A stretch of 64,000 bases of DNA, taken from the NCBI GenBank assembly GCA_030272155.1, contig CP126200.1, positions 2,170,001 through 2,234,000 on the forward strand, given 5' to 3'. A program made the translations under genes and the position numbers. Below, in pieces: positions 1 to 61,002 of the stretch; position 1 is the first letter of the stretch, and every line of letters starts with the position of its first letter. Origin of the DNA: Tetradesmus obliquus. Lineage: Eukaryota > Chlorophyta > Chlorophyceae > Sphaeropleales > Scenedesmaceae. The notes under the pieces are model-generated. The model was not told where the DNA came from. It saw nothing but the letters and a program-made list of their open reading frames with translations, and made no database searches.

Positions 1-3000
1 GGCGGCGTCTGAGGATGGAGCGCACGAGGCGCAGCTGCGCTGTGAGATGACAGAGGTATGCACTGCGACTCACTCTTGCATGGTGCGCTGTGATGTCGCT
101 GAGCCTGGTTCTTCCGCAGGAGCTGCAAGGCTTTGGGGTTGTATTGAAGACAGTTGCTTAAAATATGGTTGGAATTGACGCCTGCTGCTCCTGCTGTCTG
201 CAGGATGTGCGGCTGCTGCTGTCCCGCGGAGTGTCTGAGGTGCACCGCGAGGCGGCGGCGCTGAAGGAGCAGCAGCTGGTGCTAAAGCTGGAGGCTGGCA
301 AGCTCACCAGGGCAGAGCTGCTGATGCGGCAGAAGGTGCGGCTCTTTTCGGCTGCATGACAGCCCTGCAGAGCATACGGCTGCCCATTGTGCTTGAACTT
401 GAAAGAAAGCTGTCATGTGGCTGTTCCACTGCTGTCAGCGTGCCTGACCCTGTTGCAGTGGCAGCGGTACATTGTGCAGTTGCTTGCCGTGTCTGCCACG
501 GCACCAAGGTCAACATCCAACTGCTGGCTGTGCTGTCAGTCCAGTTCGCCATCTGCTGCGTCCTCTTCTCGGCAGCAAATCCCTGTTGCGCATGGATAGT
601 GCTGGCATTAGTCTGCATTGTACCATGCTGCCCCAAGCCTCACACCACAACCTCATGTGCAGGTCGGCTACCTGGAGCGCGTGAATGCCGAGCTGTGTGA
701 GCTGCTGGAGAAGTGTGACGCTGAGGCACTCAGCCAGCAGGGCAGCCTCACGGCAGAGAAGCGGGAGCTCACCAGCCGCATGAGGCAGCTGCAGGAAGAG
801 GTGCGGTCCACTTGACGAAAATGACCGGTTCGATAGAAACACAGCTCTTATACAATGGGTCGACACTGTCTACTGGGCAGGCGTAACTGACGCATTAGTT
901 GCACACCGGATGCTTCCATCACCGTCTAGCTTTCCGCTGCTACAGCACACTCATTTGGTACACTAATAACATGTAACTAACGTTGTTGCGGTGCGTGCAG
1001 TTGGTGCGGCTGCATGACCGCAGCAGTGCCCTGCTGGCTGAGTTAGAAGAGCACAAGGCAGCACGTAGCAGCAGGGGCGCTGCCGCCGGCGCTGCGAGGG
1101 CCATGGATCAAAGTGCAGCGCCATCAGAGGCTGCAGCCCGTGCTGCGGCATGTGCAGCTGACAAGGAGCTCATGCTCAAGCAAATCGACAGCCTGAAGGA
1201 GGTGCGGTGCATTTCTGTTGCGGCAGGCGAGCAAATGCGCGCCTCTAGCAGTATTCCTATGGCAGCCAGTTGAAGGACAGTGATGGCAATGGCTTGTCGT
1301 AGGCTGCTTCCATAAGGCAGAATGCTGTCGTTTGGATTAATATTAGGCTGAGGCGGGACGAGTGTGCTGTGTTTGCAGGCGCGCACTGAGGCTGAGCACA
1401 TGCGGCAGGAGTGCCACAGCCTGCAGGCGCAGCTGGAGCGCAAGCAGGCACAGCTGCAGGAGCTGCAGGTGGGTGTGATTAAGCGCTGAGCTCAAAGTTG
1501 TCAGCAACAGGGCATGCAGCAGACTTTTGCAGACATATCGCACCAAGCCTATATAGTTGTTGCAGGAGAGAGGGGACAGGCATTACACAGGAGTGTGTTG
1601 GCAGAACTCTGCAAGCCATGCTCTGCTGGTGTGCTGTCGCGGTACTGTTGCGCTACCATTCTTATATTCTCGTGTGTTGCAGGCCACCTATGATGACGTG
1701 CTGGAACGGCTCAAGGGGCAGAGCACAGCGCTGCTGCAAGCCCTGGGCAACGGCGGCGGCATGGCTGGCGCAGCGGATGAGACAGCGCTTGCGCAGGTGT
1801 GTGGCAATATTCTGCTGCAGACACAGTGTTGTGCTACAGTGTGTTTACTGCTGCCTCCCCTTGTGGCAGCACTGCCAGCAAGCAGCAGCTTGGCAAGAGC
1901 ATAACGTGACATTGCTGCTAGCCACGTGGCAGCAATTGAGCTTACTGTTCTGCATGTCCTGCTCCTGCTGACTTTGTGCTGCTGCTGCCAGCTGCGGGCC
2001 GTTGCTGAGGCTACCTATCCGTGGTACACACAGTGTTATTGCACTCACTGGTGCACTGACTGCTGCCATCCTACCATGCTCGTGCTGACTCTATTGCAGC
2101 TGCGGGCGGTTGCTGAGGCTGCCATCCGTGAGCTGCAAGCCACACAGCTGCAACTGAGCTGACTGTGCTGCATGTCCTGCCGCTGCTGACTTCGTGCTGC
2201 TGTTGCAGCTGCGGGCGGTTGCTGAGGCTGCCATTCGTAAGCTGCACAGTGTGTTATAGCACTGACTACCGCACTGACTGCTGCTGTCCCATCATGCTGC
2301 TGCTGGCTGTGTGCTGCTGTTGCAGCTGCGGGCGGTTGCTGAGGCTGCCATCCGCGAGCTGCAAGCCAAGGTGAAGGACCGTGAGGAGCAGCTGGAGCAG
2401 GCCACAGCCAAGCTGCAGGAGCACCAAGCAGCGTACCTGGCACAGCATGCCAAGGACAGGTAAGCCTCATGATCACATGCGCAAGGCAGCTGGAGCAGCA
2501 GCTGCACAAGTTACTTGTGAGTGTGGATGCATGTGATATGCCATGGACTGTTTGGTTTGATAATGGAGTGCAGACTGCTGAATGATGCACACCGCACTCA
2601 AGAGCAAAAACCTTTCTTGTTTGTGTTACTGTGCAGGTCTGAGATTGAGGCGCTCAACAACAAGCTCTTTGAAAGCGGCGCTGCCAGCATTGCTGGTCTC
2701 AAGGCCAACCTGGCGCGTGCAACAGCAGTGCTGGCAGCAACAGGCGACGGCAGGGAGGAGGTGAGCCGCCTGCTGCTGTTGCTTATGGCCTTGGGCGTCA
2801 GACCGGACTGGCATGAACATCTAGCTACCCGCTCTTTGCACACGAGCATCTGTTCACATCGCAGCTCACGTGCTGCCTTGGCAGCGCTTTGGGAGGCACA
2901 GGGTCCTTTTCTGACCTGACTCCCAATCACCAGCTTCCAAACTGTTTTGCCTGCTGCTTGGGACTGCATGCTGCAGGTGCCTTATGAGCAGCTGCGGCTG

Positions 3001-5120: not shown

Positions 5121-5156
<36 letters not shown>

Positions 5157-5190
5157 CAGGGCAGCAGACCCAGCAGCACTGAGCCTGCAT

Positions 5191-5229
<39 letters not shown>

Positions 5230-6201: not shown

Positions 6202-6236
<35 letters not shown>

Positions 6237-10512: not shown

Positions 10513-10547
<35 letters not shown>

Positions 10548-19847: not shown

Positions 19848-22800
19848 GATGGCAGCAGCAGCAATCGCACAGTGGACAGACAGCATGCGGTGAAACCAGG
19901 CAGAGGGAGGCAGCTTGGGCACACGCAAAAGCCATGTGCCGGCACAGCACAATAGCATCACCAAAACGTGCACAAACGTGCACAAACGTGCACAAAAAAT
20001 CATGCGGCTTGCCAGCCATCTGCAGTGCCTTATGCCCAGCGCAGTGTCGTGCTACCGGCAGGTGGCAGCTCACAAGGCAGGTGTCCTCCGGCTGCAGCAC
20101 AACAGACTAGCGTTTGCAAAACACGAGCGCAGTGCAGTCGTACCGCAGCATGCGGGCAGCTACCTTTAGCAGATTGTGGCAGCTACAGCTGGGTGCCAGA
20201 GCAAAACTGTGTACTACCACACGAAATACACATGCCAGCCTGTGTGCAGGTGTAGCCCACAGCTACTTCATGCCCACACGCTTGCCGACACCACATCACG
20301 GCACCGCAGCTCACCAGGCAGGTGTCCTCGGGCTGCAGCATCACGCTGCGCACGGTGGGCTCGCACAGCACGCCGTAGGCCTCCAGGTGCTTGTGGCCCA
20401 GCGCCCGCGTCACGCTGAGCTCAAGGCCGGCCCAGATGCCCGCAAACACGCTCAGGTAGCCGCGGTCCTCGGAGATGCTGTGCGTGACAGAGAAAGCATT
20501 GCAGAAACAGGAGTGCGTGAGCAGCAGCCTATCCATGACGCTGCGCAGCAGCAGGCTAATTATTGAAACTGTGTGTGTTGGTGCGTGTACAGGAGATTGC
20601 ACGTTTGTTGCGACAAGCTCAGGTAGTCAGGGCGATGTTGTGAAGCTCTTTCAAAGCCTTGAACTGCAAACAAAAATTCCATTTTGAGTGAAGCTTGTTG
20701 TAGCGCCTCACCGAGCCATTCTGCCGTGGTCTCGCGTGATGCGCTGCGCCTCCTCGTCATTGCGGCCGTTGTGGTCTGTGGTGAGGAAGAGCGCCTCCAC
20801 GTCACCATCGACCAAACTGCTTGCAGGAAAGGCAGCAGGCGGGCAGGCAGTGCGGCACACGTCATACAGGCTGCTTGCAGGAAATGACAGCAATGGGAGG
20901 TTGTGGCAAGGAAGCGCGCCTCCACGTCACCATCGACCAAACTGCTTGCAGGAACAGCAGCAGGCGGGCAGGCAGTGCAGCACACGTCATACAGGCTGCT
21001 TGCAGGAAACGACAACATTGGGAGGTTGTGGTGAGGAAGCGCGCCTCCACGTCACCATCGACCAGGCTGCTTGCAGGAAACGCAGCAGGCGGGCAGGCAG
21101 TGCGGCACATGTCATACAGGCTGCTTGCAGGAAAAGACGGCACTGGGAGGTTGTGGTGAGGAAGCGCGCCTCCGTGTCACCATCAACCAAACTGCTTGCA
21201 GGAAAGGCAGCAGGCGGGCAGGCAGTGCAGCACACGCCATACAGGCTGCTTGCAAATAACGACAGCAGTGAGGCTTGTTGATGAGGAAGCGCCCCTCCAC
21301 GTCACCATCAACCAAACTGCTTGCAGGAAAGGCAGCAGGCGGGCAGGCAGTGCGGCACACGTCATACAGGCTGCTTGCATGAAGAGCAGCAGAAGGGCAG
21401 GGCGTGCAGCAGATGTTATACAGGCTGTTTGCAGGAAAAGACGGCAGTGAGGGTCTGTGGTGAGGAAGCGCCCCTCCACGTCACCATCAACCAAACTGCT
21501 TGCAGGAACAGCAGCAGGTGCGCAGGACGTGCGGCCACGTGATATAGGCTGCTTGCAGGAAGCGACAGCAATGGGAGGTGGTGGTGAGGAAGCGCGCCTC
21601 CATGTCACCATCAACCAGACTGCTTGCAGGAAAGGCAGCAGGCGGGCAGGCAGTGCGGCACACGTCATACAGGCTGTTTGCAGGAAAAGACGGCAGTGAG
21701 GGTCTGTGGTGAGGAAGCGCCCCTCCACGTCACTATAAACCAAACTGCTTGCAGGAACAGCAGCAGGCGGGCAGGCCGTGCAGCACACGTTGTTGAAAGC
21801 CAAGGGTCGGTTTGGCCTTGTGTACTTCAAAACAAGCCATAACTCTTGACACATGTCATACAGGCTGCATGCAGGAAGATATAGCAGTGATGTTCTGTGA
21901 TGGGGAAGTGCGCCTCCACGTCACCATCACACAGGCTGCTCGCAGGAAAAGGCAGCACGCAGTGCAAAGCATGAGGACAACCTCACTTAGAAGGCATGGT
22001 AGGTGCAAACACACTGGATGGCTTGAGAAGAAGGCAAGGTACATGGACAGGAACTAGGGGAGCACCCATTCAACATTAACAACACCGGGAAACATCGTGC
22101 GAGCATGCAGGCGTCAGTGCCATACTTGAAACAAAGCACCAAGTCACAGGAGGACGGTCACCAAGGCTTCCCTTGCGCACGCAACAATGCGAGTTGCCAA
22201 TAACAACCTTGCAGCCCTGCCGAAAAGCATGCGTACCTGACAAGTGCTGCAGCGCTGTCCCCCACATTGGCAATGCACAGCCTGTCGCCCTGCACCACCG
22301 CCATGGTGCAGGTGGTGCCGCACTCCAGCAGCCGGTCGCCACACACCTGCAGGCGCAACAGCGATAGCGGCAGCAACATCTTAGCACAGGCCGTGGCTGG
22401 CCAGGAACCTTCGCTGTGCAGGCGCTGCCATCCCCAGCAGAGGTGGAACAAGTTGATGGTCAATGTGCTGCCGCATGCATACACGTAATCATCTTAGGCA
22501 AACCTTAGACATAACTAATATGCTTGTTGATAGACAAACCACTTTTGAATGCATGTAAGCGGTCAAGCGGCGCAGTTTGCTACTGATTTGCATGACTGCA
22601 CATGCAATGCCGCCCAGCCCTGCTGCGCTGCAGCTCACCCTGTTGTAGGAGCTATCTGGTCGGTACACCGGTAGGCCATTGGGGCGGTACAGCGTGTAGC
22701 GGGCCTTGTTCCTGCAAGCCGCGGCACAGCAAGCACGGGGATACATTTCACGGCAGGAAGTCAAGATCACGCAAAAGGCACTGGCAGCAACGCGAGGAGC

Positions 22801-34743: not shown

Positions 34744-36888
34744 ATGGCGGGCTGGCGCTGGTTGGCGGTCTCTCTGACCCTGCTGCTGCTCGGGCTGCCT
34801 CAACACCTAGCCGCGTCCAAATTCGTAGCCAACCCGTCTGCTAGACTATCGCAACAGCATCGACAGTTTGTGGAAAAGATGTGGGAGTCAAACCTTGCGA
34901 TGTCAGAGAGCCTGATCAGGGCTGGCTACAAGCATGAACTGGAGGTAGGTCACCAACGGTTGCGCATGCAGGTTACAGCAGGCACCATACTATTCAAGGG
35001 ATGCTGTGACAGCAGCTGCAGTCTCTTCAACACACAGCAGTGCAGATGGTCGTAAGAGGGCAGTGCTTGCTAGCAGCAGTTGCTGTCAGCGCACGACATG
35101 CGTCACGTGCACGTCATGCTTGATGGGTTGACAAATGCACCAAAAGCAGGTGCTCAGCCATCCCGCAAAACTACGCAGCACCCTGTTTTGTTGAAACACT
35201 CTTGGCAGCAGCACATACAAAAGCAGTTGTGCACAAAAGCCAGCAGCACTCATCACGCAATGTGCTGATGTGCACAATCAACATACTTCCCCCTAGCCTG
35301 ACACATAGTGACACTATGACGGTTTTGCTGCTGACGCCTAAAGGACACCCAAAGCACTGCTGGACAGAGATTTACAACTGCATGGCAAATTCCTGCTGCG
35401 GCTTGCAGGGCAGGAACTGGGCGCGGCTTGTGCAGAAGCTGAGCACAGAAGGCAGCACAGTCAACATCGTCGCATTCGGAGGCAGCGTGACAGTCGGTTA
35501 CAGGCTGAGTAACACGTCATACCCCGAGGAGTTTGTTGAGTGGCTGGGGGCCACCTTTCCAGGCGTGAAGTTCAACCTGATAAACCTGGCGAGGAGAGCA
35601 ACAGCAGCAACGTTTGCAGCGTTATGCCTGGTGCAGGACTTGCCAGAGGATGCAGGTGAGCTGGCGGCAGCAGCAGCAGCAGCAACAGCAGCGGCTTGAG
35701 CAGTGGCAGCAGCAACAGCAGCGGCAGCAGCAGCAGCAGCGACAGCAGCAGCAGCAGCGGCGGTGGGGAGCAGCGGCGGCGGCGGCGGGGAGCAGCAGCA
35801 CTGGCAGCGGCGGCAGCAACGGCAGGCACAGCAGCAGCGTTTGCAGCTGCAACCTTGCCGTGACGCTGTGCATTGCCACGCCGACTCGGTTGAAATTGCT
35901 ATGCGGCAGCTGCACGCGCTGCCAGCACTGCCCAGGGTCACCTGTGCTAGCATGATGCTGCTGCTTGCAGGAAAGTAGGAATCCCAGCTTGAAAAGCACA
36001 CGGACAGCTGCCTGATTTGACAAGCAGTTGACAGGCTCTGTGGGCAAACAACGACTGCAGCCCTAAGCAAACGCCACACGCAGCGCAAAGCCAACCATCA
36101 GCACCTGCTACACCAGCACGCCTCAAGTTCACTGCACTGCTGCAAATCTGGCGCCACTAGAGTACAGCGTGAATGGCTACGGTGGCCAGCAGTTCAAGCC
36201 TTGTTACAAACAGAATAACAGCCTCTCTAACTTACGTAACATCTTCAACTGCGCTGCTGCAGATCTGGTGCTACTAGAGTACAGCGTGAATGGCTATGGC
36301 GGCCAGTGCCAATGCTTCACAAGCCCACAGACAGCCGGCTACGAGACCCTGCTGCGCAAAATCATCAAAAAGGCGCCGCACACCGCCATGCTGGCTTTTG
36401 CCAGCTTCATGTGGCTGGACAAGGAGAACAAGCCCGGCAAGTATTATGAGACAGGGGAGGATCAGCACGGCGTGGTGGCCAGGCGATACGGTGAGCAGCA
36501 AACATTGAATAATCGGGTGGTTCTGGTAGAAACTGTTTCAGCAGTGCTGCAGCAATCAGGTTTGTGTTGCTGTGGCGCTGAGAGGGTTTCTGCTGCTGGC
36601 TTTGTCATGCAGGATAACCACCTGCTGCTGCTGCTGCCGCTGTTGCTGCTGTGTCCAACATCAATCGTGCATACCACAAAGCATAAAGGTCTTACGCTCA
36701 TTGCAAGTGATGACCGCTGCCGCCGCTGCCGCCGCTGCTGCTTCTGCTGCTGCTGCCTTCAGGCGTGCCCATGATGAGTGTGCGTGACGCGCTGTATGAC
36801 GTCATGTTTGACCCTGACAACGCATATGGTGTCAAGAGGGAGGAGATACTGGTGGACATCGTGCACGTGGGAGACTAGTGAGTAGCAT

Positions 36889-36931: not shown

Positions 36932-38250
36932 GCCGTGAAGCCGCGGCAGCAGTGATGTTTATCTCCTTGCATAGGGCACTGGTGGCGGACTGCCACTGTG
37001 CGCAAGGCATGCATGCATATAGGAGGCAAGGCATGCATGCATATAGGAGGCAAGGCATGCATGCATATAGGAGGCAAGGCATGCATGCATATAGGAGGCA
37101 AGGCATGCATGCATATAGGAGGCAAGGCATGCATGCATATAGGAGGCAAGGCATGCATGCATATGTACCACCCAAGTCCTGCGCCTGCCTTGCCACATCC
37201 TTGTTGCTGCTACTTTTGCTGCTCTGTCTGCAGCGGCGCCAAGGTGTATGCAGCCTTCCTTGCCTGGGCGGTGCGGCATCAGGCCACCCGTGTAGTGCTA
37301 CACCACCGCAGCTTAGCAGCAGCAGCACGCCACACGCCTGCAATGCCGCCGCCCCTCAACCCAGAAGCAGCGCAGGAGGACTGGCCGACGTTTTGTGCAG
37401 AGGGGCTGGGCCTGCAGAAGTATGTGACAGAAAACAAGGGCTGGAAATGGGTGGACGAGGGCACAAACGCATGTGCAGGTGCGTCCTAACAATTATTCTT
37501 TGCAGTTGTTCCTTATTGTGTATCTATTGCGTCATATCATACCCAGCAACGGCAGTAGAGTGGTGTTGTACAATCAGCGATCAGCACTGGAGATGATGCC
37601 AGTGCCTGCTGTGGGGTTGCAAGCACGTGCAAACTGCGCGTCTGTGTGTTCATGTCACCCGCATGCATATATGTCACCTGGATGCATTGATGTCATCCGC
37701 ATGCATTGATTTCACCAGCATGCATTGAGGTCACCCGCTTGCATTGTGTCCAGCCCATGCATTGATGTCACCCGCATGCCTGGCTGCACAAACAGTCATC
37801 GCTCTTGTTGTCGCAGCTGACGTATACATGTCATGTCGACCGTCATACACAGGCTGCCACCGCTACGGCTACCTGACCAAGCAAGTTGGTGACAGCCTCA
37901 CCATAAAGGTCAACTCGGACGTCCTCAGCGAACAGGATAAAAAGGACCAAGCAAAGGTGATGCTTGCGCTCACTTTTTTGAAGTCATATTCTGATGTGGG
38001 GCACGTCAATGTGGAGTGCGTGTCGGGCTGCGAGTGCGAGCCCAAGGTGTTTGATGCGAAGAATTCACGGCCCACGAGCGAACTTCACACTGAGAGGATG
38101 GAGATCGGGCATGGCAAAGAGTGCCTGCTGAAGTTCACGATCCTGGATGCGACCTCAACAAATGGGCACAAGTTCCGACTGGCGTCTGTGGCGGTGCATA
38201 AGGCTGACAAGGTGATGAGCTACGCCTACGGCCCGGTGTATGACAGATGA
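34744..38250 (+). CDS. Secreted SGNH/GDSL-type hydrolase with C-terminal beta-rich domain
   Basis: Six exons: 34744-34944, 35409-35655, 36263-36490, 36763-36877, 37234-37478 and 37853-38250, totalling 1,434 nt and 477 residues. Residues 1-25 form a signal peptide (WLAVSLTLLLLGLP, then LAAS), so the protein should enter the secretory route. SGNH blocks: VAFGGSVTVGY with nucleophile Ser93; LVLLEYSVNGY, where Asn159 aligns with the oxyanion Asn and the usual ND is NG; and DIVHVGDYGAKVYA with Asp257 and His260 as the likely catalytic pair. The last about 130 residues contain ECVSGCECEP and look like a separate ligand-binding or beta-sandwich domain. The substrate is unknown; an esterase or deacetylase acting on wall or capsule glycans is a guess. 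A dead copy of the exon 3 start lies upstream in intron 2, and a 24-bp minisatellite sits in intron 4. Confidence 0.86.
36137..36308 (+). repeat. Duplicated start of SGNH exon 3 in the preceding intron
   Basis: The block around TACAGCGTGAATGGCTA, encoding EYSVNGYGGQ, occurs at the real exon (36263 onward) and again 117 bp upstream (from 36137). In the upstream copy the acceptor CTGCAG has become CTGCAA, which would abolish splicing. Confidence 0.92.
37003..37166 (+). repeat. 24-bp minisatellite, seven copies
   Basis: The unit starts CAAGGCATGCATGCATATAG, with copies at 37003, 37027, 37051, 37075, 37099, 37123 and 37147 (the last partial). It contains self-complementary GCATGC and ATGCAT. It lies inside intron 4 of the SGNH gene. 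Because 24 is divisible by three, it keeps frames open on both strands, which mimics a coding repeat. Confidence 0.95.
37660..37785. repeat. Degenerate array of about 19-bp units (GCATTGATGTCACC-like)
   Basis: Repeated CATGCATTGATGTCACC-like words with many substitutions in intron 5 of the SGNH gene. It resembles the nearby 24-bp array in carrying GCATGC/TGCAT cores. Confidence 0.7.
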
Positions 38251-39319: not shown

Positions 39320-45476
<6,157 letters not shown>

Positions 45477-45969: not shown

Positions 45970-48900
45970 ATGTCAGGGCATATCCCCATCGCCCTGCCCA
46001 GGGGGTCTCTAGACAGTAGAAGGGAGCAAGATGATGACCTACAAGCAACTAATAGCGGTCATTGGCCTCGTACCTGGCAGGATGCCTCCAGCTGGGCTGC
46101 ACGCGAGCCCCGCGTGGCAGGCAGTTTGCAGGTGAGTAGGGCGCAGTACAGCTACTGCCCGCAGCTATCAGCAGCAACACCCAACCGCCAATGTTGTCTG
46201 GCATTGCTCAAATAGCAGCCAATTCACATGTCAGCCACCCAAGCTTGACTCTGCAGGCAGCTGGTGCCTGTTGTGGGCAGCGCTCCACCCACCAGCCGCC
46301 GTTCCTGCAAGTGATGTGTTACTTTTGCCTGCCTGCAGCACTCGTTCATCCGCACTCGGCACCCAGAGATACTTGACTCGGAGCAGGAAGCACGCTCACC
46401 CCTGATAGGCGCAGCGGCAGCAGCATGGGCTCAGCAGAGGCCCGCAGCAGCCAGAGCAGCAGCAGGCGAGGACGGCAGCATACGAGGTGGGTGTGAGGGG
46501 GCACAGCAACTTCTGTAATGTTTGTGACAGCGGGCTGCCGGTAGGGGACAAGTGCGTTGAGCTCATGAACTAAAGGATTCACCAGGTATTCTTAGCAGCA
46601 GGACGGCATGGCAGGGTCAGCTCAGATTACATCGCAATACCGGTGGCGTCCATAGCCCAGTCAGATCTGAGCACTGGTCAACTTGTGGCACATTGCCAGC
46701 ATGGCGAGCGTGTGAAACCAGCTGCAACTGTATACCACCTGGCAGCATCATGCAAACACCACCGCAGTTGACGATCACCAGCGAAGCACACTCAGTATGC
46801 CATGCTTTGTGTGTTTGCGCAACACTGCCTGGATCCAGCCTCCACATATTTGCATTGCTCTGCTGCTGGCGTCCGCACTGCATTGGAACGCTGATGCTGT
46901 TTGTTTTGATTGATCAGTATGCTGTTGCGGGAGCACCCTTGTTTGACCATCTCACCCGTCTGACCGTCTGACTTCTTTGACGTACAACGCAGATGACTTG
47001 GAGGAGCCGTTGCTGTTTGACTTTGAAGCAGAAGAGGAGCTTGCAGCAGCAGCAGCGGCAGCAGCAGCAGCGTCCGGCTCAACATCAGCCGCCACCATAG
47101 CAGCAGCAGCAGGGCTGGTTGAGACCAGCTCAGTCATTTCTGCGGTGCCATCATCGATAGGCCTGCGCTCCGTGACAAAGGACGCTCTGGGCACTCATGT
47201 GCAGACAGAGCAGTACACAATGCACATAGAAGAGGTGTGTGGCGAGTTGATGATGATGTCTGCTGCTGCTGCCGGTGTGGGCTGGCATCAAGTACTCACG
47301 CTTGCAGTCTGCGTGATTACCTACAGCAGCATGTGATGCAGCCCATGTAGTCAGGGTTGAGACTGGCTAAGCAGCGCAGCAGCAGCAGCTGGTGTTTGGC
47401 TTGCTGTAAGTGCTGATAGTGTTGCTGGGAGCAGCAACATCTCTAGCAGTAGCCATGTTGCGTCATGCGATGCCTTGCATGAAAAGTGGTACGTGGTGCT
47501 GCTGGCTGTACTTCAGGGTGGTCTGTGCATGATGGCAGCAGGAACAGCAGCAGCAGAAGCAGCTGTATCACGCCTGTATTGTCGCGTGCGCTTACAAGCT
47601 TACCGGCGCAAACCTGCTTCTTTCTTTTGTGCCTGCAGGAGCGTGCAACCAGCAGCAGCTGGCAGGCAGCATTCAATGCCATCAACATCCTGTGTGGTGT
47701 GGGGCTGCTCACCACGCCGTATGCAATGGCCATCAGTGGCCTGAGCTCCCTGCTGCTGCTCATCGGCATAGGTGAGGACAGCACGTCTGGTGGTTCTACA
47801 TACACATTGAAACCTATAGTTCCTACATGCACATTGAAGAGGGTTAGCACCTGCCCGGCTGGGGTGGGTGTGCTCTGGATGTGTCAGATTGCGTGAGTGG
47901 AGGAATAAAAGGTGGGACGGCGGCGTTTGGTTGGCCCTGCACTGCACCAGAAGCTGCAACAGGCTGATGTGGGATGGCTTGCCGCCTGTTTTTTGTAACG
48001 TAACCCTGAACTTTGCCGCCACCTGCGTCTGCTGCGGCTGCATCCTGCTGCGTCCTGCTGCTATGCAGGCGGCATTGCCTGCTACACAGGCCGGCTGCTG
48101 GCCAAGTGCAGGGCAGCAGATGATGCCACAGCCTGTTTCAGTGCTGTGATTACCCTGCAAATTGATGTAACATGCTGCCGCTGCTGCTGCGTCCTTCTGC
48201 GATACAGGCGGCATCGCCTGCTACACCGGGCGGCTGCTGGCAAAGTGCATGAACAGCAGCAGGGCCATCCGCACCTACCCAGATATTGGCCAGGCTGCGT
48301 TTGGGCGCTGGGGGCGGCTGCTGGTGTCTGTGCTGCTGTACATGGAGCTCTTCTGCTGCTGCGTGGACTTCCTCATACTGGAAGGTGCGGCGCCAACGAT
48401 GTAATCTGCTGGTGCAGCAGCTGTGAAAGGCGTTTCAACTGGCTGTCAGTGTTGTCTGCAGCTCCCTGCGTGACAGTGTCGGTGATTCTGTGCCCATGCA
48501 TAAATAGTGTGTGTGATTCTGTGCCCATGCACCTTTTGCACAGCAGCTGTTGTAATTGAGTGCCAGCTGGCGCTGAGGCAGCATTGCACGCATAAAGGCC
48601 TACGAGCAAACACTGCAGCTTCAAAACAGCGTCAGACTATCAAACTGTAAATGTCCGGTGCTGCAACAACACCAGCACCAAGTGTGTTTTCAGCCATGTC
48701 AGCGCTCTTATCACGTGCTGCTAATTGTTATTGCAGGAGACAATCTGTCTGCGGTGTTTCCTCAGGCTGCAGTCAGCTTAGGAGGCTTCAGTTTGACCGC
48801 CAAGCAGGTGGGAGGTGCTGCTGCCATCTAGTTCAGTAAACAGTTGTTCCCAAAACAGTTTGTCCTAACTGCTGCACAGATGTGCACTGTTCGCCAGTAT

Positions 48901-50759
48901 CATAGAACAGGTTGGAAGCACTAGCAGAGCACAAGAGTCTTGCCATGTGCCTAATGCGTTGCCCATTGTTCCTGCTCCTGCACAGCACACATGCTGCTCA
49001 TCAGCTCCTACTGTCACAATCGCAGAGTCTGCAATTTGCCACCCGGCTTCTTCTCACCAGCACCTCCCTGCAAACACGACCTTCTGCATCCCTGCAGAGC
49101 CTCATTTTGGCGGCAGCAATTATCGTGCTGCCCACGGTGTGGCTGCGGGACCTCTCGCTGCTGTCTTTCCTGTCTGTGGGAGGTATATTTGCCTCCCTGG
49201 CTCTGCTGGCTCTGGTGGGATGGGAGGGAGTGGCAGTCGCTGGCTTCCCACACGACCGGCCGCCGCTAGTGACGTGGTCCGGCGTGCCTGTCTCAATCGG
49301 GCTCTTCTGCTTCTGCTTCTCAGGTGGGTGCCTGCTAGGTTGGGGTCGGGTGTGTACTGTTGGCTTGAGTTGTGCTCAACCACCACGCCATTGCCGTTTT
49401 TGTTGCTAGTAGAGGCTGTGAGGTAGTGGCACACACAATCACAGAGTCTGATCTGTTGCCCACATCATTCATTGGCAGCACCCGGATGCCTTGTTCAAAG
49501 GTGATCTTTGGGTGGCAAGCGTTGCTGAATGCCGCGTGCGTTTTCTTGCTGGCTGCTTGGTGTGTTTGCTGTGCAGGCCATGCCGTGTTTCCCTCGCTGT
49601 ATGCCTCCATGCGCACTAAGAGCCACTTCCCCTGGCTGCTGCTGGGCTCTTTCAGCGTGGTGGTGGCGGTGTACGGCAGCATGGCAGTCATGGGGTGAGT
49701 GCATGTCAGGCAACATGCCAGTGTAGGGTGACGCAGACAGAGTGCATGTCAGACGGCATGCTAGTTTAGGGCGAGGCAGCATGGCAGTCATGGGGTGGGT
49801 GCATGTCAGCCAACATGCCAGTGTAGGGTGAGCCTCATCTGAGGCAGTGGAGGAGGCCGGTGTGTGACAGCAGCACTTGGGAATTCCATGAATAAGCTTC
49901 TGCACAAACTGTTTGATATTTTGGCACAGGTCAGGCGCCGCCGTCTGGATCAAAGCTGCATCTTCCGCGCCATCTGCTTTGCTGCAGCAATGTGGTGCTT
50001 GTGCTGCTGCTGCTGCTGCTGCTGCTGTGCCTGTGCGTGCAGGGCGTTCATGTTTGGGTCAGAAGTGAGTGAGAACATCACTCTGGACATGCAGGACTAC
50101 GCACCCAACGCAATGCCCACAGTGGTGGCGATGTGGCTGGTCATCGTCAACCCAATCGCAAAGGTGGCGCTGACCCTGGCCCCTGTCGCGATGGCAATGG
50201 AGGTGAGGCATTCAAACAGAACTCCATGCTGCCGTTGCATACTTAATCTTGGGTTGCATGCTTGCATGCCTTGCTTGCCCTGACATGCCGTCCTTGTGCT
50301 CCCATAATAAGAGGCCGCAGCTGTTTTCTGCAAAGCCAGCTGTTGATGATCTGACACGACCTGCCCGGCACTTGCCTTCCTGCAAACCGAAAAACACGAC
50401 ATATGTTTTCTCTGACACCATCTTTTGTTTTGTTTTTGTTATTGCAGGAGCTCATCAGCGTGAAGCATGGCAGCTGGCGCTTCACTGCGGCCTCTGTAGC
50501 GCTGCGTACCGCGCTGCTGGCGGTGTGTGTCGTGGTGGCCATTGTGGTGCCCTTTTTCAGCCTTGTCATGTCGTTTATTGGTGCATTCATGAGCATGTCC
50601 ATTAGCATTGTGCTGCCATGTGTGTTTTACCTAGTGATCTGTGCAAAGGATGTTACAAAGGTGGACAGGGTGGCGGCTGTTTCTGTGGCAGTGTTTGGCT
50701 TGATAGCTGGCACCATGGCTACCTATGAGGCTATCACAGCCATCTACAGCAAGTACTAG
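45970..50759 (+). CDS. Amino acid/auxin permease (AAAP) family transporter, AVT1/vacuolar-type
   Basis: Proton-coupled amino-acid transporters of this branch usually sit in vacuolar or other endomembranes. Ten exons: 45970-46131, 46339-46486, 46993-47234, 47639-47771, 48208-48384, 48737-48807, 49098-49323, 49577-49694, 50043-50202 and 50448-50759. They total 1,749 nt, giving 582 residues with matching phases. A soluble N-terminus of about 185 residues with acidic EEPLLFDFEAEEE is followed by the AAAP signature SWQAAFNAINILCGVGLLTT and PYAMAISG. Roughly ten hydrophobic helices follow, including SLILAAAIIVLPTVW, GHAVFPSLYASM (the conserved segment with HAVFP) and FFSLVMSFIGAFMSMS. The stop TAG is at 50757-50759. 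Exon 5 start, exon 8 end and the gene end are each duplicated nearby. The exact substrate cannot be told. It diverges from PEX6. Confidence 0.93.
48061..48260 (+). repeat. Duplicated acceptor plus start of transporter exon 5
   Basis: GCGGCAT-GCCTGCTACAC followed by GGCTGCTGGC occurs after a CAG at 48069 and again at the exon used, 48208 (period 139 bp). The upstream copy keeps its AG acceptor but leaves the reading frame after LLAKC. Confidence 0.92.
49675..49835 (+). repeat. Duplicated end of transporter exon 8 plus donor, 100-bp period
   Basis: GGCAGCATGGCAGTCATGGG followed by a GTGAGT or GTGGGT donor ends at 49694 and at 49794. Shorter sub-repeats of GTGCATGTCAG lie between. Confidence 0.93.
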
Positions 50760-50865
50760 CTGATATCACTGCTACCTTTCAGTGAAGGGGTGGCAGAGCA
50801 CAGCTGCTGCAGCAGGGTGACATGCGCTAAGCAGGCCTGTCAAAGCCATCTACAGCAAGTACTAG
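50735..50865 (+). repeat. Duplicated gene end including the stop codon (transporter)
   Basis: The last codons and TAG (AGCCATCTACAGCAAGTACT, then AG) occur at the real stop, 50757-50759, and again with TAG at 50863-50865, 106 bp downstream. Confidence 0.92.
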
Positions 50866-51868
50866 GTGGTGAAGGTTGGCAGCGTGAGCGTGGCAGCCTG
50901 CATCATGGTGGCATGCATTGACCAGGTTCAACCTGTGGCTTGCAGGATTTATGGCTTGCAGTGCTCTGAAGTTCATGCAGAACATTGTGCATGCCAAGCT
51001 TTGATGCCGCTGCAGATTGACATGGCTGCAGTGGTGCTGGCGGCGTGCTTGCATGCTTTGCGCACTGCGGCTTTGCTCTGGCAATGAACTGTGCATGGCT
51101 TTTTATCAAGTTGCACTCTGCTGGTGGCAGGCTGCGTGCATTCAGTGTGGGCACAGGCATTTCTTGCTGGTAACTCATTTTGGCATAAGCAGTTGACGAG
51201 TTGTTGCGTTGATTGTGTTTGCGCTGGTTAAGAGGCAGTGCAGGACTGCTGCAAGTGCTGGTGCTGTCGAATCGGGTGGGGGCACCCTTGCTTGCTGCAC
51301 CCGGTGGGCATTATTTGGGCGCTTAGAATGCTGTTCTTGGTGTTTAGGCTTGATGTTGTGATGGCAGTATTGCCGTGATCTTGGGGCATGCGCCGCTTGC
51401 GTGTGTGCTTGCTTCATGCGCGGTTTTTGCACATTGGGCAGAACGTGTTGGGTTTGAGAATTGTGGGTTGGGTTTGTGTTTGTCCTGCTTGTTTGTCTCG
51501 CTGGTTGCTGCGCTGTGTAGAGTGCAGCTTCTGCGCTCTGTTGTGGCCACACCATTTATGTAGCCCAGGTCAGGGGTGATGATGGGTTGAGCTGGGGTCA
51601 GGCTGCTGCTGCATAGCAATTGACAGTGGGTGCCAGGGTGGCTTGTTGCACATGCTCTCGGTAATGTCTGTGCACTGTCGAGTATCGTGGCTGCGTACCG
51701 ACTGTGGCACAAAGAACGCTGCGGCTTAGAACCCAACAGCGTGTCACTGGCAGTCATGTGACAAGTCATGCCAGGGTTCAGCACTGCTGAGCAAGTGCAG
51801 CACTTGTGTCCAGGCCCTCATCAGGCAGAGGGACTGGGCTGCTGCAGGTTCTGCAGCTGCTAGACGAA
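50760..51868. other. Intergenic, G/T-rich region between transporter and cyclin L
   Basis: 1.1 kb without a supported gene. It is G/T-rich on the + strand, as expected for a 3' UTR of the transporter. An acceptor-like CTGCAG just before 51849 suggests that a 5'-UTR intron of cyclin L may end here. Confidence 0.5.
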
Positions 51869-54800: not shown

Positions 54801-55399
54801 GGCAGGATAGGCCAGAGGGCAGGCATGACAGCAGGCATGATAGGGACAGGGAGCGAGGCCGGGGTGATGACAGGGACAGACACCACAAGCACAGGGATAG
54901 GGACAGGAGGGACGGGCGGCAAGGGGATGGCAGCAGCAGAGGTGGCAGGGAGCAGCAGCAGCAGCAGCGGGGGCCGCAGCCGTCAGCCGCTGAGAGGCAG
55001 CATCCTGGGGGCAAGCCTGCAGCTGCCGCAGCGGCAGCGGCAGAGAAGGGTGCAGCAGCAGCTGCTGCTTTCCCTCCGCCACCTGCTTCAAGTAATGCGG
55101 CAGCAGCAGCTGATGCTGGCGCTGCAGCAGATGCAGCAGGCTTTCCTCGGCCACCTGCATCCCCTGGTGCAGCCAAGGAGGGCGCAGGAAAAGCCGGGGG
55201 TGCTGCTGCTGGGCCTGGCAGTGCAGCAGGTGCTGCACGAGCAGCCCAGCAGCAGCAGCAGCAGCGGGATGGCAAGGGGAGCCAGCCTGCAGCAGCGACT
55301 GCTGCAGCAGGAAGCGCTGCTGCCGATGCTGATGCAAGCGCTGCACCAAAGCCCAAGCCTGTTGCTGTCCGCAAGCGGCCGTCTGCAACAGCTGCTGCG

Positions 55400-55442
<43 letters not shown>

Positions 55443-55567
55443 GGGCAGCAGCACCTAGTGCCAAGCCTGGCGCTGCAGCAGGCGGGAGCAGCAGGGACAA
55501 GGATGCAGCTGGCGGCAGCAGCAGGGACAAGGGCAATGGGGCAGCTGACAAGCCAGCTGGGGCGTGA
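51869..55567 (+). CDS. CYCL: Cyclin L (RS-domain cyclin, partner of CDK11-type kinases)
   Basis: In animals and plants cyclin L activates CDK11/CDKG kinases and takes part in pre-mRNA splicing in nuclear speckles. Exons: 51869-52120, 52262-52432, 52619-52830, 53130-53211, 53429-53731 and 54257-55567, totalling 2,331 nt and 776 residues. The cyclin boxes (residues about 10-270) carry the family blocks NFYLSPEQLENSPSRKDGID, AVMATGQVLLHRFYCKRS, FVAHVEHPHKLLLNYC, LQEAWNVANDRSLRTTLCVRY (the last residues across an intron) and VPLPETPPWNALF. The C-terminal 436 residues hold an RS/RD-rich domain (RSRSRSRD, RDRDRD, HHKHRDRDRR), then Ala/Pro/Gln low complexity. The ATG at 51869 is the first in the exon with the conserved block; a longer N-terminus via an upstream exon cannot be excluded. 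TGTAA lies about 300 bp past the stop. Confidence 0.97.
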
Positions 55568-58500
55568 TGTTGCGTGTTGGGCAATGTGGTTCGTCATGTC
55601 ATTGCAGGTAGGTTCATATGGATGGGGTTTATGTTACCTGCTCTGCATGCATGCTTGGAACCATGTTTGTTGCTCGCTTGTACAATGGAATGCATGTGCT
55701 GGCGCCGGCTGCGGCACAGCATCATTCAGACGCTCAAGGACTGCTGCAAGTTGCAGCAGCAGTGGGTGCAACATGCGTTGAGCATGTTGCCACCTCGCCA
55801 CAGGTAACGTCAACTTCAATGCTCTTCGACCTGTTGTTGAAGGCTCGGTATATTTTTGCATGGTGTAAGCGTTTTAAGAACATAATGTGCTCCTTGATTT
55901 GCAGTTGTGCTGCTTTGGTGTGTGAATCCCTCTGCCGCTGCTCCCTCATGGTTGCATATGTGTGTTGTTGCAAGGGCTTGCAGTGATGTTTGTCCTGTTT
56001 GTTTCTGTTGGTCTTGGTCACATTATGCTGCTCAGACGCCACTGTGCGCCCTCGTTGGTGTGGTACAGTGTGCATGCATGGCTGAGAGCGCTCTATGCCT
56101 CGGACCCTGCACTCAGGCTTTCGTGTGCCCTGTTGCTAGGTTGCGGCGCCCACGATGCGCAACCCGTGCTGTGCACGTGGCTCTCCACCCTTGCTGGGGC
56201 AATCTGCGGCGATGTGTTGCTGTGTGTGCCCAGCCACACCAGCCAGCCTGGCCGAGCCAGCAGGGAGCAGTGCAGCAGCCACCAGGGGGAGACACCCAGC
56301 CAGCTGCTGCCACCAACGCCGCCGCCGCCACAACTAGAAGCGTCGTGCCGACTTTCGCCAGTAGGGCCGCAACACACATCATGCAGGAGTGCAAACAACA
56401 GTAGGCAGGCATGCACATGCACAAGCACACATCTAGATAGCATGCATGGCAGCTTGCAGCAGGGCAAAGGGAAGGGAGCGCATTGTGTTTTCATTTTGTT
56501 AACAAAAAGTGTATCGCATCCTTGGATGGCATGTCGCGAGTTCCAGCATTGCCAGCACTGCTTGACACAGCACATGCTGCCACTGTGAGCAGTGGGATGT
56601 GCTGCAGGCGCTGATATGTCAGCGCTGGCTGGTCAGCTGCACGAATGCTGTGGCCGCAGCACTCACAACATCCGTGTGGCTGCAGGCTGCCGCGTCCTGT
56701 AGTGTGAGTAGTTCCAGCAACATGTGACGGGCCCATCGTTGTGGTTCTGCAGTCCAGTACGCCATCCATGCTGTGTCATTGATGAGTGCCTGTGCACACC
56801 TCGATGACAAAGCAAGTCTGGCATACTGGGTGGCATAGTGTGACAGGGTGCTGCAGCTGCTACAACCTGGTCACTGCATGTGGCTTGTAGTGTGATTCGA
56901 CAGCCCTGCTTAATGTTTTGTCATCCGCTTCCAGGAGCTTTGTATGCTGTCAGTGCTTGTCCTGCAGTGGGTGCTGCTGCAAATGGTATGGAGAGTGGTG
57001 AAGTACATACTGATGTGTCTGACAGAGCAGCAGGACAGCAGCTCATGCAGCATCTGGTTGTGCATGCACTGGCCATTGCTGCATGTGGCACCATGTCGGG
57101 CAATTGTAAGCTTATCGAGATGGGCTAGCCAGCTTGGCTTGCCCTGTCGGTAGGTGCACTTTCTGTTGGCATGGTTGCCCATGGAAGCATGGTCAGGAGC
57201 ATGCAGTGATGCTGCTGTGCTTGTATGCTCTTTTGCAACGTTGTGCTGTTTTTGAAGCAGTTTGTTTGGATTAAATGCATGCAGGGGATGGGGCAGGTAG
57301 GGGTTTGGAACCGCTGCATGCACACCGCTTGCAGGGCACAAAGCACACCAGGAGCATAACACAAGCATGCACATACACATGGCGCAGGCTTTTGAGCATG
57401 GCATGACGGCGGCGGCGGCAGCGGTGGTGGCGGCTGGAGGGTCAACCCACTGGTGGCAGGCACATCAGACAACCCCTCTGCTCTGCTCAGGCTGGCTGGC
57501 TGGCTGGCGCGGTGGTGGTGGTGGTAGTGTGAAGGCTCGCTGCGGACTGTTGACGGCTTCTCACTGTTGTGGCCTGTGGTTTTCTCTAGTTGAACGGCGT
57601 GCCAGGCTGTATGCCGGTTGCGCCTGTGTTGAGTGGTTTGCCCTATGATGCCTAACAATATATACGCTATTCTGAACACACATACAGTGTGTTCAATGTG
57701 GACAGCTTCTTGCAAACTGAGGGCTTGTGAAGTCTCGTCTTGCTGTTGGGTGTTTTGTCGGTTCTTGCTTCTCCTGGTTGGCTCAGAGTTGGACCTGAGC
57801 CGATCAATGACTGTGCGCCCACAACCCTGCACTTGTGTCGCACGGATGTACTCATCTGTATGCCGTTGATCTGCGCCGCCTTTTGCCCTTGCAGGTGCTG
57901 CATCTGCATGCAGCCTGCCCTCGCCAACCGCAGGAGCTTCCAGGGCGATGCGCCTGCCAACCCAGCTGCTACACATTTTCACAAACCTGTTCCTGCCAAG
58001 GCGCTCCAGTGCGGAAACTGTCATATGCTCAGGGCATGCGAAGGCACCGCGTGAAGGGGTCGGCACGTGCTTGCAAGGCACAGCGGATCGTTCGCTGTCT
58101 TGCTGCATGACGAAGCATGTGCACAAATGCTGGCCATTGCCCAGGCAGCATTTGTTGGCCACCCAGCGGTGGGGGGTGCCGCTCCCGCTGCTGATTGGCT
58201 GTTTCCATATGTTGGGTTGCCCAATGATCAATCTTGCCATTGAGCTCACCAAGCAGGCTGTGTGACGTGTTGCCTTGCTGCAGAAGCAAGCAGCTCCACA
58301 GCCTGTCGTATTGTATCACGTGTAGTTACTGGTCTTGAGCACCAAGATCCTGTTGCCAAACTCGCTCTATGTGTCTGTATCCATGTGTCCGTCTGGATCT
58401 ATCTGGCTAGACACTGCCTGACTGTTGTTGTCTGTTTGTTGTTGCGTGTTTTGGGGTGGTTGATGACTTCCTTGTGTACATGCTGGGCTCCTGCATAAGG

Positions 58501-59915
58501 AGCAGTGTGCAAAGCACACTTGGCTGGGCTGTCAGCCTGGCCTTGTCTGTAGGTTCGGTACAACCGTATGTAGAGCTTGCATCTCGCACTGTGTGTGGCA
58601 CTTGATGGTGCGTGCTGGATGCTGGCGCGCATACCCTGGTAACACACATAAATCAGAAGCTGGCCTGATGAACTCCTGAGTGATGGAGAGCCTTGTTGAA
58701 GTTTACGCCAACTGGCACGCCAATGGAGCAGGCGAAAACCACAGTGGTTCTTTCGTGACGCTGCATGCATGTGATCCACAGACAGATGTGTGCGCAGTGT
58801 CCAAGACAAGGTACTGTTGCCTCCAAATCTTGGAAGCTAACCTGACATCGCAAATCATCACTGATCAGTTGAACTGACCAGCACTGCTGGACTACTGGCA
58901 GCTGATTGGATTCACAGCATGCTCGTGAATGAAATGCCAGTTTAGTGGCGCTTGCGCAATTAACAGCTCCCTCATCAACAGCACGTGCCGCTACTAACAG
59001 CCGAGCCTGATAGGCTTGAGTCTGATATCACAGCATCCTCCATTTGACCGCTGGCATGCAACTTGCAACTCTCTGTCAACAGCGCGGAGCCTGGCATAGC
59101 TTTGACACTGCTGTATCAAGGATGCATGTTGAAGAGGGGTCAAGGCGCCAGTGCAGGCGCTGACACCCATCCCAACCACCACATGTGTACAGTGCGCCTC
59201 CTTTGACTACGCGAACAACACACACCGCTGATGCTGACCATACACTGCCTGGCTGCCAAAGCTGCGGCTGAGGAAGCAACACACTGCAGGCGGCCTCGCA
59301 TACGTGACACGTTTTTACATGCGCTCAGCAAGAACTTGTGCATACACGTGAACATACACTTAGCAGAGCAAGTTCTGCAGATGCAGGGGTGCTGACAAAC
59401 TACACCATACATTGGACCGAGCAACTTGTGCTTGAAAACCTTGGTGAGGAACACGTGAATAGCACAAAGTTGCATGGTATGACCTGTGCCAGCAACCAGA
59501 CGCTGTTTCAACAAGCCTCATAGAGCAACACTTGATGTACACAGTCTCATAACAACACCGCTTACATGTACAATTGAAATCTTTTGTCATAAACACTGCA
59601 CATCACTCTCCTATGCTGACAAGCCTTCCATGCTGCGTAACACCTAAGGTCTGTTGCACAACCTGTGCACTGCAGGGCTGGCAGCTGTACCAACCACACA
59701 GCAAAACACACACCCCGGGGTTGGTCTGCACACGCGGCTGCACGGCTGCACAGCTTACGCTGTGACCTGGCAGCGTAAGTGTGCAGCTTACAGCGTGAGG
59801 CGCCTGTCACGCAACAGCCGGTGCTCCAGTCTGGCATCAAGCGCCACATGTATATTGACGCTACGTGTGTTGCATGGCTGTACATCCCACTCTCTCGTAA
59901 AAAGCGACCAACAGC
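55568..59915. other. 4.3-kb region without a confirmed gene between convergent cyclin L and an unrecognised gene
   Basis: The + strand is G/T-rich to about 58.6 kb, then turns C/A-rich from about 58.9 kb to 59.9 kb, mirroring the genes on each side. A few exon-like frames exist (for example - strand 56,620-56,780, + strand 56,930-57,128 and + strand 58,683-58,877), but none could be joined or matched to a family. Confidence 0.45.
55864..55868 (+). terminator. Candidate TGTAA polyadenylation signal of cyclin L
   Basis: TGTAA lies about 300 bp after the cyclin L stop in G/T-rich sequence, a typical distance for a chlorophyte 3' UTR. It is a pentamer only, so weak by itself. Confidence 0.35.
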
Positions 59916-59975
59916 TCACAGCTCAATGCGCCTGTCACGATGCAGCCGGTCCTCCAGCATTGCATCATGTGCTAC
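59788..59975 (-). repeat. Duplicated gene end with stop codon (unrecognised gene)
   Basis: The last exon end, encoding an H-x-RL-RDRR-like tail and a stop, occurs with TGA at 59918-59916 and again with TAA at 59790-59788, 128 bp further on. The second copy reads ARLEHRLLRDRRLTL. Confidence 0.88.
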
Positions 59976-61002
59976 ATGCGCTGCATGGCTGTCCTTGAAC
60001 TCTGCAGCATCCTGCAGCAGCACGCATGCAGCAGAGCAGCAGCCGCATGGACGCATGCGAAACATGGCATGCTGTGCATTCACGGCATGCACCATGTTTA
60101 TGTGTACGGCTGTGCATTCACGGCATGCACCATGTTTATGTGTACGGCTGTGCATTCACGGCATGCACCATGTTTATGTGTACGGCGGCAGGCACAGGAG
60201 GATACTGCCAGCTGGCCGATGCTCACCCTGCATAATTTCTTTGCAGCTCATGGCACAGAGCACGGCTACATGTGGAAATGCCGGCCACAGCTGCAACACC
60301 AGCTCCACGTGTAACCTGCTGCTGCTTCTGCTGCCAGCCTTGAGCGGCAGTGTAACACCAGCTGCAGCGGCAGCAGCCCTATTTAATATAATTGAAGCGT
60401 ACGCCTCACCTGCAGCACCTGGTCCACCTTGTGGCCGATGCTGTGCAGGCCTGGCACTTTGCTGGGGCTGTGAGGCCGGGGTGAGCCATCCTGCACCACA
60501 CAACGAAAACATTGTGGAATGCAACAGGATTGTAATCCTATCCTGGATGCTGCTGTGTGCCTTGTTCCTGTGGTTATGTGCAGCAAACAAATGCACAGCC
60601 AACAGCATTGAAAACATTCGCCACCAAATGCATCAACATGCCAACACCACCATGCGATCCCGCAAGTTCTCGCGCTATGCTGCATTTTACTGAAAGTCAC
60701 ACACATACACACATACACAACGACCTGATGACAGACGCTGCTGCCTCCCACCTTCTGCCCTGGCTCCTTGATCTTGTCCTCTAGCGGCACCAGGCTGTCA
60801 TCAGCTGTGTTCCCTGCCAGCCCCACGCAGACATGTCATAAAACATGTTACAAACAACTGCCCCCACCTGCTGCCCTGGCTCCTTGATCTTGTCCTCTAG
60901 CGGCACCAGGCTGTCGTCAACTGTGGTCACTGCCAGCCCCACGCGCCGCAGCGCGGAGCGCAGCGCGCCGAGCACGATGGACACCTTCTCTGCCACATAG
61001 CC
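59916..61002 (-). CDS. Unrecognised protein gene, C-terminal exons
   Basis: I do not recognise the family. Exon-like blocks in sense order: 61002-60868, 45 codons starting GYVAEKVSIVLGALRSALRR and ending EDKIKEPGQQ before a donor; a short block near 60,430-60,390 reading LHSIGHKVDQVLQ; and a last exon ending at 59916 reading DAAEFKDSHAAHVAHD and RLHRDRRIEL, then TGA. The junction between the first two is not resolved in phase. The product looks alpha-helical and amphipathic, possibly a coiled coil. Both the donor of the first block and the terminal exon with its stop are duplicated nearby, the same pattern as in the firmly identified genes, which supports these being real exon edges. A membrane-type first exon may be at 61523-61819. 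Confidence 0.5.
60072..60185. repeat. 38-bp tandem repeat, three copies
   Basis: The unit starting CTGTGCATTCACGGCATGCA begins at 60072, 60110 and 60148. Copies are almost identical. It is placed in an intron of the unrecognised - strand gene. Confidence 0.95.
60752..60910 (-). repeat. Duplicated exon end plus donor (unrecognised gene)
   Basis: The segment encoding DDSLVPLEDKIKEPGQ and a GTGGG donor ends at 60868 and again at 60752 (period 116 bp). Residues are conserved in both copies. Confidence 0.92.

What the first reader, a model, noticed from the sequence alone, without database searches (positions are those of the whole stretch)
1992..60910. Recurrent tandem duplication of exon edges: acceptor side, donor side and stop side
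In five genes (CEP290-like, PP2C, SGNH hydrolase, PEX6, AAAP transporter) and one unrecognised gene, 20-60 bp of exon edge together with its splice signal or stop codon are repeated inside the adjoining intron or 3' flank. The period is roughly 90-140 bp. I count about seven acceptor-side, four donor-side and two stop-side cases in 64 kb. The copies straddle a functional boundary, keep or lose the splice signal, and drift. I know of no described process that would target exon boundaries this way. Candidates are slippage between CAG/CTG-rich intron ends, splicing-linked breaks, or selection for decoy sites that tune splicing. Simple unbiased tandem duplication of about 100 bp, seen only where one half is constrained, is the null model.
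Basis: partly seen in the sequence, partly recalled or inferred. Interest (0 to 1): 0.85.

Follow-up and report, generated by a model that had tools for sequence, protein, structure and literature searches.

The report
Tandem duplications at gene coding edges
In this algal-type genome small stretches of about 100 to 140 letters are often copied next to themselves, and the copies that survive and stay visible are mostly those lying across the edge of a coding segment; this is real and frequent, but ordinary small duplication plus selection probably explains most of it.

Summary
Confirmed: in 344 kb (window plus 28 other 10-kb stretches of the same genome) exon edges recur in the adjoining intron or 3' flank at offsets of about 100-140 bp.

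Splicing-linked targeting is not supported. Stop codons are hit as often as splice sites (2 of 49 versus 28 of 705). Exonic duplications of the same size occur too, 9 of 10 exonic offsets being multiples of 3, while boundary-crossing offsets are 10/9/10 modulo 3. The extra copies drift like non-coding DNA. A Rubisco-activase paralog lacks the copies of its sister and has its own elsewhere.

Best reading: ordinary tandem duplication (in rice the process falls off above 125 bp, PMC7971508), sorted by harmlessness and visibility. Against full closure: 35 of 40 informative events of 100-140 bp cross an edge, where simulations of this null give 0.40-0.72, and at 12 of 17 loci with exon parts at least 90% alike the rest of the unit looks unrelated.

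Interest moderate. A whole-genome count of young duplications, or a sister genome, would settle it.

The parts
1914..2368 (+). CEP290-like gene, acceptor side: real exon start 2326; intronic copies of its first ~40 bp near 1992, 2100 and 2209 (spacings 108, 109, 117)
20777..21960 (-). PP2C gene: exon-edge copy amplified to a 125-bp array inside an intron (real edge taken as 20816 from the gene model, uncertain)
36131..36189 (+). SGNH hydrolase: intronic copy of acceptor plus 44 bp of exon (AG changed to AA), offset 117 to the real site 36262/36263
36248..36306 (+). SGNH hydrolase: real acceptor and exon edge
41008..41190 (-). PEX6 donor side: two intronic copies (41008-41070, 41128-41190) of the exon end plus donor, period 120
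41248..41310 (-). PEX6 real exon end and donor (intron starts at 41266; placed by hand, the gene finder put it at 41223); no gap at the junction in the CDC48 alignment
40923..40955 (-). PEX6: intronic copy of exon bases from about +20 of the next exon (real 40798-40830), offset 125; exon start placed by hand
48033..48119 (+). AAAP transporter acceptor-side copy, offset about 140 to the real site 48207/48208
48173..48259 (+). AAAP transporter real acceptor and exon edge
49675..49731 (+). AAAP transporter real donor (after 49694) with 20 bp of exon
49775..49831 (+). AAAP transporter donor-side copy, offset 100
50731..50762 (+). AAAP transporter terminal exon end with stop TAG 50757-50759 (read by hand; missed by the gene finder)
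50837..50868 (+). copy of the AAAP stop-side segment in the 3' flank, TAG kept (50863-50865)
59784..59850 (-). unrecognised gene: copy of the stop-side exon end in the 3' flank (TAA where the real stop is TGA)
59912..59978 (-). unrecognised gene: real last-exon end with its stop codon
60741..60828 (-). unrecognised gene: intronic donor-side copy, offset 117, 93% identical
60858..60944 (-). unrecognised gene: real donor (60867) and exon end

Best explanation
The repeats are the surviving, still visible fraction of ordinary small tandem duplications of about 100-140 bp. A segment is duplicated head to tail, probably by repair of paired nicks or a staggered break (inferred). If the unit lies wholly in an exon it survives only when its length is a multiple of three. 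If it crosses a coding edge it is nearly harmless whatever its length, because splicing keeps the outermost sites (or translation stops at the first stop) and the extra copy becomes non-coding; it then drifts. Wholly intronic or intergenic duplications are harmless too but fade sooner, because both halves drift and intron sequence turns over faster than exon-derived sequence (inferred). So coding edges of three kinds, donor, acceptor and stop, look like the target. Some pairs are later amplified into arrays by unequal exchange (inferred). Shown here: periods, the frame filter, equal rates at stops and splice sites, neutral-like drift of the copies, and presence/absence between two paralogs.
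For: Exonic pairs: 9 of 10 have offsets divisible by 3; the tenth (window 40798) I read as an intronic copy miscalled as exon. Boundary-crossing pairs: 10/9/10 for remainders 0/1/2, n=29. Rate per edge at offsets 80-165: acceptor 15 of 357, donor 13 of 348, stop 2 of 49, start 0 of 45. Copies against the real exon at codon positions 1, 2, 3: 10.0, 9.0, 15.9% over 78 pairs (these include short predicted exons and the PP2C array), and 8.1, 8.8, 17.5% with one copy per boundary, n=29: what a neutral copy beside an exon changing at silent sites would give. Introns with copies: median 349.5 bp (n=48) against 240 (n=374), and 207.5 after subtracting the farthest offset. Exonic events of the same size: 108, 114, 96, 105 bp. 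Offset is the constrained length: its sd is 14.2, against 16.8 for the exon part and 16.5 for the rest, which are anticorrelated (r -0.63, n=29). Protein checks: with the copies left out, Rubisco activase aligns to 4w5w with no gap at the junctions concerned (small gaps elsewhere), and PEX6 to CDC48 with no gap at the junction (one one-residue gap five residues before it). The rca paralog L032 shares four consecutive exon lengths, shows no pair at the boundaries duplicated in L031, and has its own donor-side pair at offset 107. In rice, tandem duplications are the commonest source of insertions and fall off above 125 bp (PMC7971508, passages).
Against: In the 100-140 bp band 35 events straddle, 4 are intronic, 1 intergenic (3 exonic and 4 mixed not counted). 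The null with detection loss gives a straddling fraction of 0.40, 0.58 or 0.72 for an intron rate 1, 2.3 or 4 times that of the copies; observed 0.875. Control bands fit rate 1 rather than 4: 5 of 19 (25-85 bp) and 9 of 14 (160-450 bp) observed, 0.23 and 0.65 expected at rate 1, 0.41 and 0.84 at rate 4 (the simulated bands were 40-85 and 160-350). At 12 of 17 loci with exon parts >=90% alike the distal part is at or below 0.70 similarity, against 13, 35 or 55% simulated (22 rows collapsed to 17 loci by hand). In three arrays (L019, L025, rca donor) exon edges 87-100% alike carry unrelated spacers. The exon part of acceptor-side units is narrower than uniform (KS p 0.013; 0.057 if the unit must hold the branch-point region); the donor side is not (p 0.40). 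Full-length pairs: >=90% identical 1 straddling and 2 intergenic of 3, but >=80% 9 straddling of 14.
Confidence: 0.6

Rival explanations
1. Partial copying: repair of a break inside an intron about 70 bp from the edge captures a nearby template, the exon edge with its splice signal, together with unrelated filler, so that only part of the ~117-bp period is homologous (repair-mediated duplication by capture of proximal DNA).
For: At 12 of 17 loci the distal part is near chance while the exon part is >=90% alike; the rca donor copy matches 33 of 33 exon bases with a spacer at 0.62; spacers alternate a-b-a-c in L025. Local repair-mediated duplications, including of splice sites, are reported in vertebrates (PMC2671141, abstract).
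Against: The offset varies less than its two parts and these are anticorrelated (r -0.63), which fits a duplicated unit of fixed size. Some arrays have spacers about as conserved as the exon part: PP2C (apart from one copy with a longer spacer) and the two inner rca KTFQ copies, 0.95 and 0.93, though the real rca KTFQ site has a diverged spacer (0.69-0.71); in PEX6 the spacer is better conserved than the exon part (0.84 against 0.72). The remainder test was shown not to discriminate.
Confidence: 0.21
2. A splicing-linked or chromatin-linked process with a ruler of about 117 bp targets exon-intron boundaries.
For: Strong excess at boundaries in the 100-140 bp class only; exon part of acceptor units centred near 51 bp with no significant correlation to exon length (Spearman 0.26, p 0.30, n=18).
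Against: Stop codons are affected at the same rate as splice sites; exonic in-frame units of the same size exist; no significant link to codon bias as a proxy of expression (Spearman 0.10, p 0.42), although copies are clustered in some genes (chi-square 138, 65 df).
Confidence: 0.09
3. The copies are kept by selection as decoy splice sites that tune splicing.
For: 67 of 78 copies keep both splice bases; several arrays have better conserved exon parts than spacers.
Against: Codon-position pattern as for neutral copies; offsets uniform modulo 3; the stop-side cases have no splice site; some copies lost the signal (SGNH, L027 306).
Confidence: 0.07
4. Assembly artefact.
For: None found; one pair is 100% identical (L005 2627-2959).
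Against: Most pairs of 85-160 bp differ by 5-30%; copies at exons >=100 bp occur in the window and 15 of the 28 stretches.
Confidence: 0.02

Closest known systems
Tandem duplication crossing an intron-exon boundary in the potato RdRp gene (PMC4974935; abstract and Results section read)
   Same: [quoted passage not shown] the copies differ at ten sites.
   Different: There the copy created a new spliced intron in one event; here the copies appear to lie within existing introns and recur across the genome.
Patch-repair tandem duplications in rice (PMC7971508, passages; Vaughn and Bennetzen 2014 and Schiml 2016 seen only as references there)
   Same: Commonest source of insertions, enriched at 50-200 bp, falling off above 125 bp.
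   Different: No outgroup here to call recent events; exon edges dominate what is still visible.
[quoted passage not shown] PMC3443670, passages)
   Same: Tandem duplication tolerated through splicing.
   Different: No new splice sites seen: in the case checked (rca) the paralog has the same exon structure without the duplication.
Repair-mediated duplications of proximal DNA in vertebrates (PMC2671141, abstract and outline)
   Same: Local duplication that includes splice sites.
   Different: Adjacency and origin of the spacer are not settled here.
Human introns from tandem arrays (Zhuo 2007, title seen only in the reference list of PMC3488318; content recalled)
   Same: Tandem copies containing splice sites.
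   Different: Not compared in detail.

Membership tests
Small tandem duplications (patch-repair type) | direct repeats of limited size, local | tested here: met
   Period peak 100-139 bp (52 of 115 clusters); four DNA queries match only their own locus, apart from the rca paralog. The DNA search is not exhaustive.
Small tandem duplications (patch-repair type) | whole unit duplicated head to tail | tested here: inconclusive
   Seen in L027, L018, one L019 copy pair and most of PP2C; not recognisable at 12 of 17 loci with conserved exon parts.
Small tandem duplications (patch-repair type) | occur in all sequence classes, purged in exons unless in frame | tested here: met
   Exonic, intronic and intergenic cases, the last two fewer than expected; 9 of 10 exonic offsets divisible by 3.
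Small tandem duplications (patch-repair type) | derived state shown against an outgroup | tested here: inconclusive
   Only one gene and a paralog, not an outgroup: L032 lacks the L031 copies and has its own; gain is the simplest reading.
Small tandem duplications (patch-repair type) | junction marks of nick repair or microhomology | not tested
   No scan of junctions was made.
Intron gain by AGGT tandem duplication | new intron bounded by the two duplicated AGGT sites | tested here: not met
   Tested in two genes only: outermost sites give proteins that align in rca and PEX6, and the rca paralog has the exon structure without the duplication.
Introner-like mobile introns | dispersed family of similar elements | tested here: not met
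   Four queries match only locally or a paralog.
Functional decoy splice sites | copies conserved beyond neutral and used | tested here: inconclusive
   Codon-position pattern as for neutral copies; use in RNA not testable here.

The most novel reading that the evidence does not exclude
A duplication process anchored on coding edges with a ruler of about 117 bp copies roughly 50 bp of exon plus the splice signal into the adjoining intron again and again, often with a fresh unrelated spacer, so that introns in this lineage grow by taking in copies of exon edges.
Probability: 0.14. Interest if true: 0.8.

Novelty: new member of a known kind. Interest (0 to 1): 0.38.

Why it matters
About 7% of the boundaries of longer exons in the sample (37 of 542) carry such a copy, so this genome is a natural record of small tandem duplications, of their frame filter in exons and of how introns lengthen. 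It also warns that exon-edge copies can mislead gene finders: mine called false mini-exons in the rca copies. If young events prove to be boundary-enriched, the long-open question of where introns get new sequence would be directly testable here.

Tried and rejected
First gene-finder training ran away to tiny exons and was discarded; the second, seeded from 15 introns read by hand in the CEP290-like gene, was used. One search crashed and was rerun. Extension tests (trivial diagonal; noisy) were not used. The remainder test seemed to reject simple tandem duplication, but simulation showed that it does not discriminate; one search replaced it. Copying between diverged homologs as a general source was considered because of the L025 array (differences almost only at third codon positions) and dropped as general, since over all pairs the pattern is as for neutral copies. 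Source of the spacers: no match confined to the rca paralog's introns at E 1e-4; one array query found no other place in the genome. Expression link by codon bias: none significant. An early estimate of detection bias is superseded. Literature searches listed no paper on genome-wide exon-edge duplication in algae; apart (6 of 6) only the top of each listing was seen.

Rows dropped: the random-placement tests and the class counts by period band use clusters with <=3 hits (100 of 115). (one copy per boundary) use exons >=100 bp and leave out the PP2C array; one search leaves out the PP2C array. Low-complexity pairs (3-base periodicity above about 0.42-0.45) are left out of the counts. The 12 of 17 loci come from 22 rows collapsed by hand; counting the row at exactly 0.70 would make it 13. 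Gene models are my own, without RNA evidence.

Full report
What was looked at. The window is a stretch of contig 10 of a 104.7-Mb genome in 17 contigs. I added 20 stretches of 10 kb, then 2 and 6 more, 344 kb in all, and later one 6.5-kb stretch with a paralog. A gene finder was written and trained on this sequence; it reproduces closely a gene that I read by hand and gives 991 predicted edges in 344 kb (446 donors, 434 acceptors, 61 starts, 50 stops). The classes below depend on these models, which have no RNA support.

Pairs closer than 400 bp number 251, against 0-4 per 400-bp band beyond 1.6 kb except one band with 16. Periods peak at 100-139 bp (52 of 115 clusters). Among low-copy pairs of 85-160 bp, 39 of 59 cross a predicted boundary, against 22.8 +- 3.4 for random placement of the same shapes; 4 of 59 are intergenic against 12.7; other periods show no excess, 14 of 41 against 13.4. 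Edge windows match a copy 85-160 bp away in 40 of 397 acceptors and 28 of 413 donors; controls are 25 of 900 inside exons, 56 of 900 inside introns (these include the copies themselves) and 14 of 900 intergenic.

What the copies are. In the arrays read, the real site is the last acceptor or the first donor. For Rubisco activase (L031) and PEX6 (window) the proteins with the copies left out align to known structures with no gap at these junctions. Copies differ from the exon by 10.0, 9.0 and 15.9% at codon positions 1, 2, 3 (131 of 1316, 119 of 1324, 208 of 1309), or 8.1, 8.8 and 17.5% with one copy per boundary, as a drifting copy beside a constrained exon should. Introns with copies are longer. 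Four DNA queries found only their own locus, or in one case a paralog. That paralog (L032) has four exons of the same lengths, no pair at the boundaries duplicated in L031, and a donor-side pair of its own at offset 107. Copies therefore differ between paralogs; repeated local gain is the simplest reading.

Why boundaries. Three facts speak for ordinary duplication sorted by selection. First, exonic pairs are in frame in 9 of 10 cases, the tenth being in my reading a miscalled intronic copy, while boundary pairs are uniform modulo 3 (10/9/10). Second, stop codons, which have no splice site, are hit at 2 of 49, next to 15 of 357 acceptors and 13 of 348 donors; starts 0 of 45. A further stop-side case in the AAAP gene was missed by the gene model. 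Third, a size limit near 125 bp is known for tandem duplications in rice (PMC7971508). A duplication that crosses an intron-exon boundary is on record in potato (PMC4974935). The offset itself is the constrained length (sd 14.2; exon part 16.8, remainder 16.5, r -0.63, n=29), as expected of a unit of given size.

What remains odd. Simulated duplications placed at random, aged and passed through a similar detection give a straddling fraction of 0.40, 0.58 and 0.72 for intron rates 1, 2.3 and 4 times the copy rate. Observed in the 100-140 bp band: 35 straddling, 4 intronic, 1 intergenic, with 3 exonic and 4 mixed aside. The neighbouring bands fit rate 1 (5 of 19 and 9 of 14). Exon parts >=90% alike go with a remainder at or below 0.70 at 12 of 17 loci, against 13, 35 and 55% simulated. 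Both numbers ask for introns that turn over about fourfold faster than exon-derived sequence. The rca paralogs, with exon matches of 80 to 94% (one short match of 100%) and no match confined to introns at E 1e-4, make this plausible, but copy-to-copy comparisons inside arrays range from equal (PP2C, inner rca KTFQ copies) to strongly unequal (L019, L025). Partial copying by repair is therefore the main rival. Full-length pairs >=90% identical show no boundary excess, 1 straddling and 2 intergenic of 3, while at >=80% it is 9 straddling of 14, with 2 exonic, 2 intergenic and 1 intronic; too few to decide.

Verdict. A real, frequent feature; a known kind of mutation with an unusually clear footprint; boundary targeting neither needed nor excluded.

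Noticed in passing
L025:525-1111: Array of exon-edge copies with spacers in the order a-b-a-c; the two a spacers are 46 of 46 identical, a and b are unrelated, and copy-exon differences are almost only at third codon positions (19 of 21 over three copies).
   Followed up: partly
L031:6700-9940: Rubisco activase gene with copies at several of its exon edges, including two arrays of four copies.
   Followed up: partly
window 39877-40500: PEX6 C-terminal predicted exon carries a 159-bp tandem repeat of about 3.8 copies, period divisible by 3.
   Followed up: no
window 37002-37164 and 60071-60186: Perfect minisatellites of 24 bp (6.8 copies) and 38 bp (3.1 copies) inside predicted introns.
   Followed up: no
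L021:558-2201: Array of about 218-bp units in which the gene finder calls repeated exons.
   Followed up: no
344-kb sample, predicted start codons: No edge copy at 45 start codons examined, against about 4% at other edges; too few to be significant.
   Followed up: no
window 45970-55807: The gene model seems to fuse the AAAP transporter with a downstream gene (cyclin-like by eye, not tested); I read the AAAP stop at 50757-50759.
   Followed up: partly
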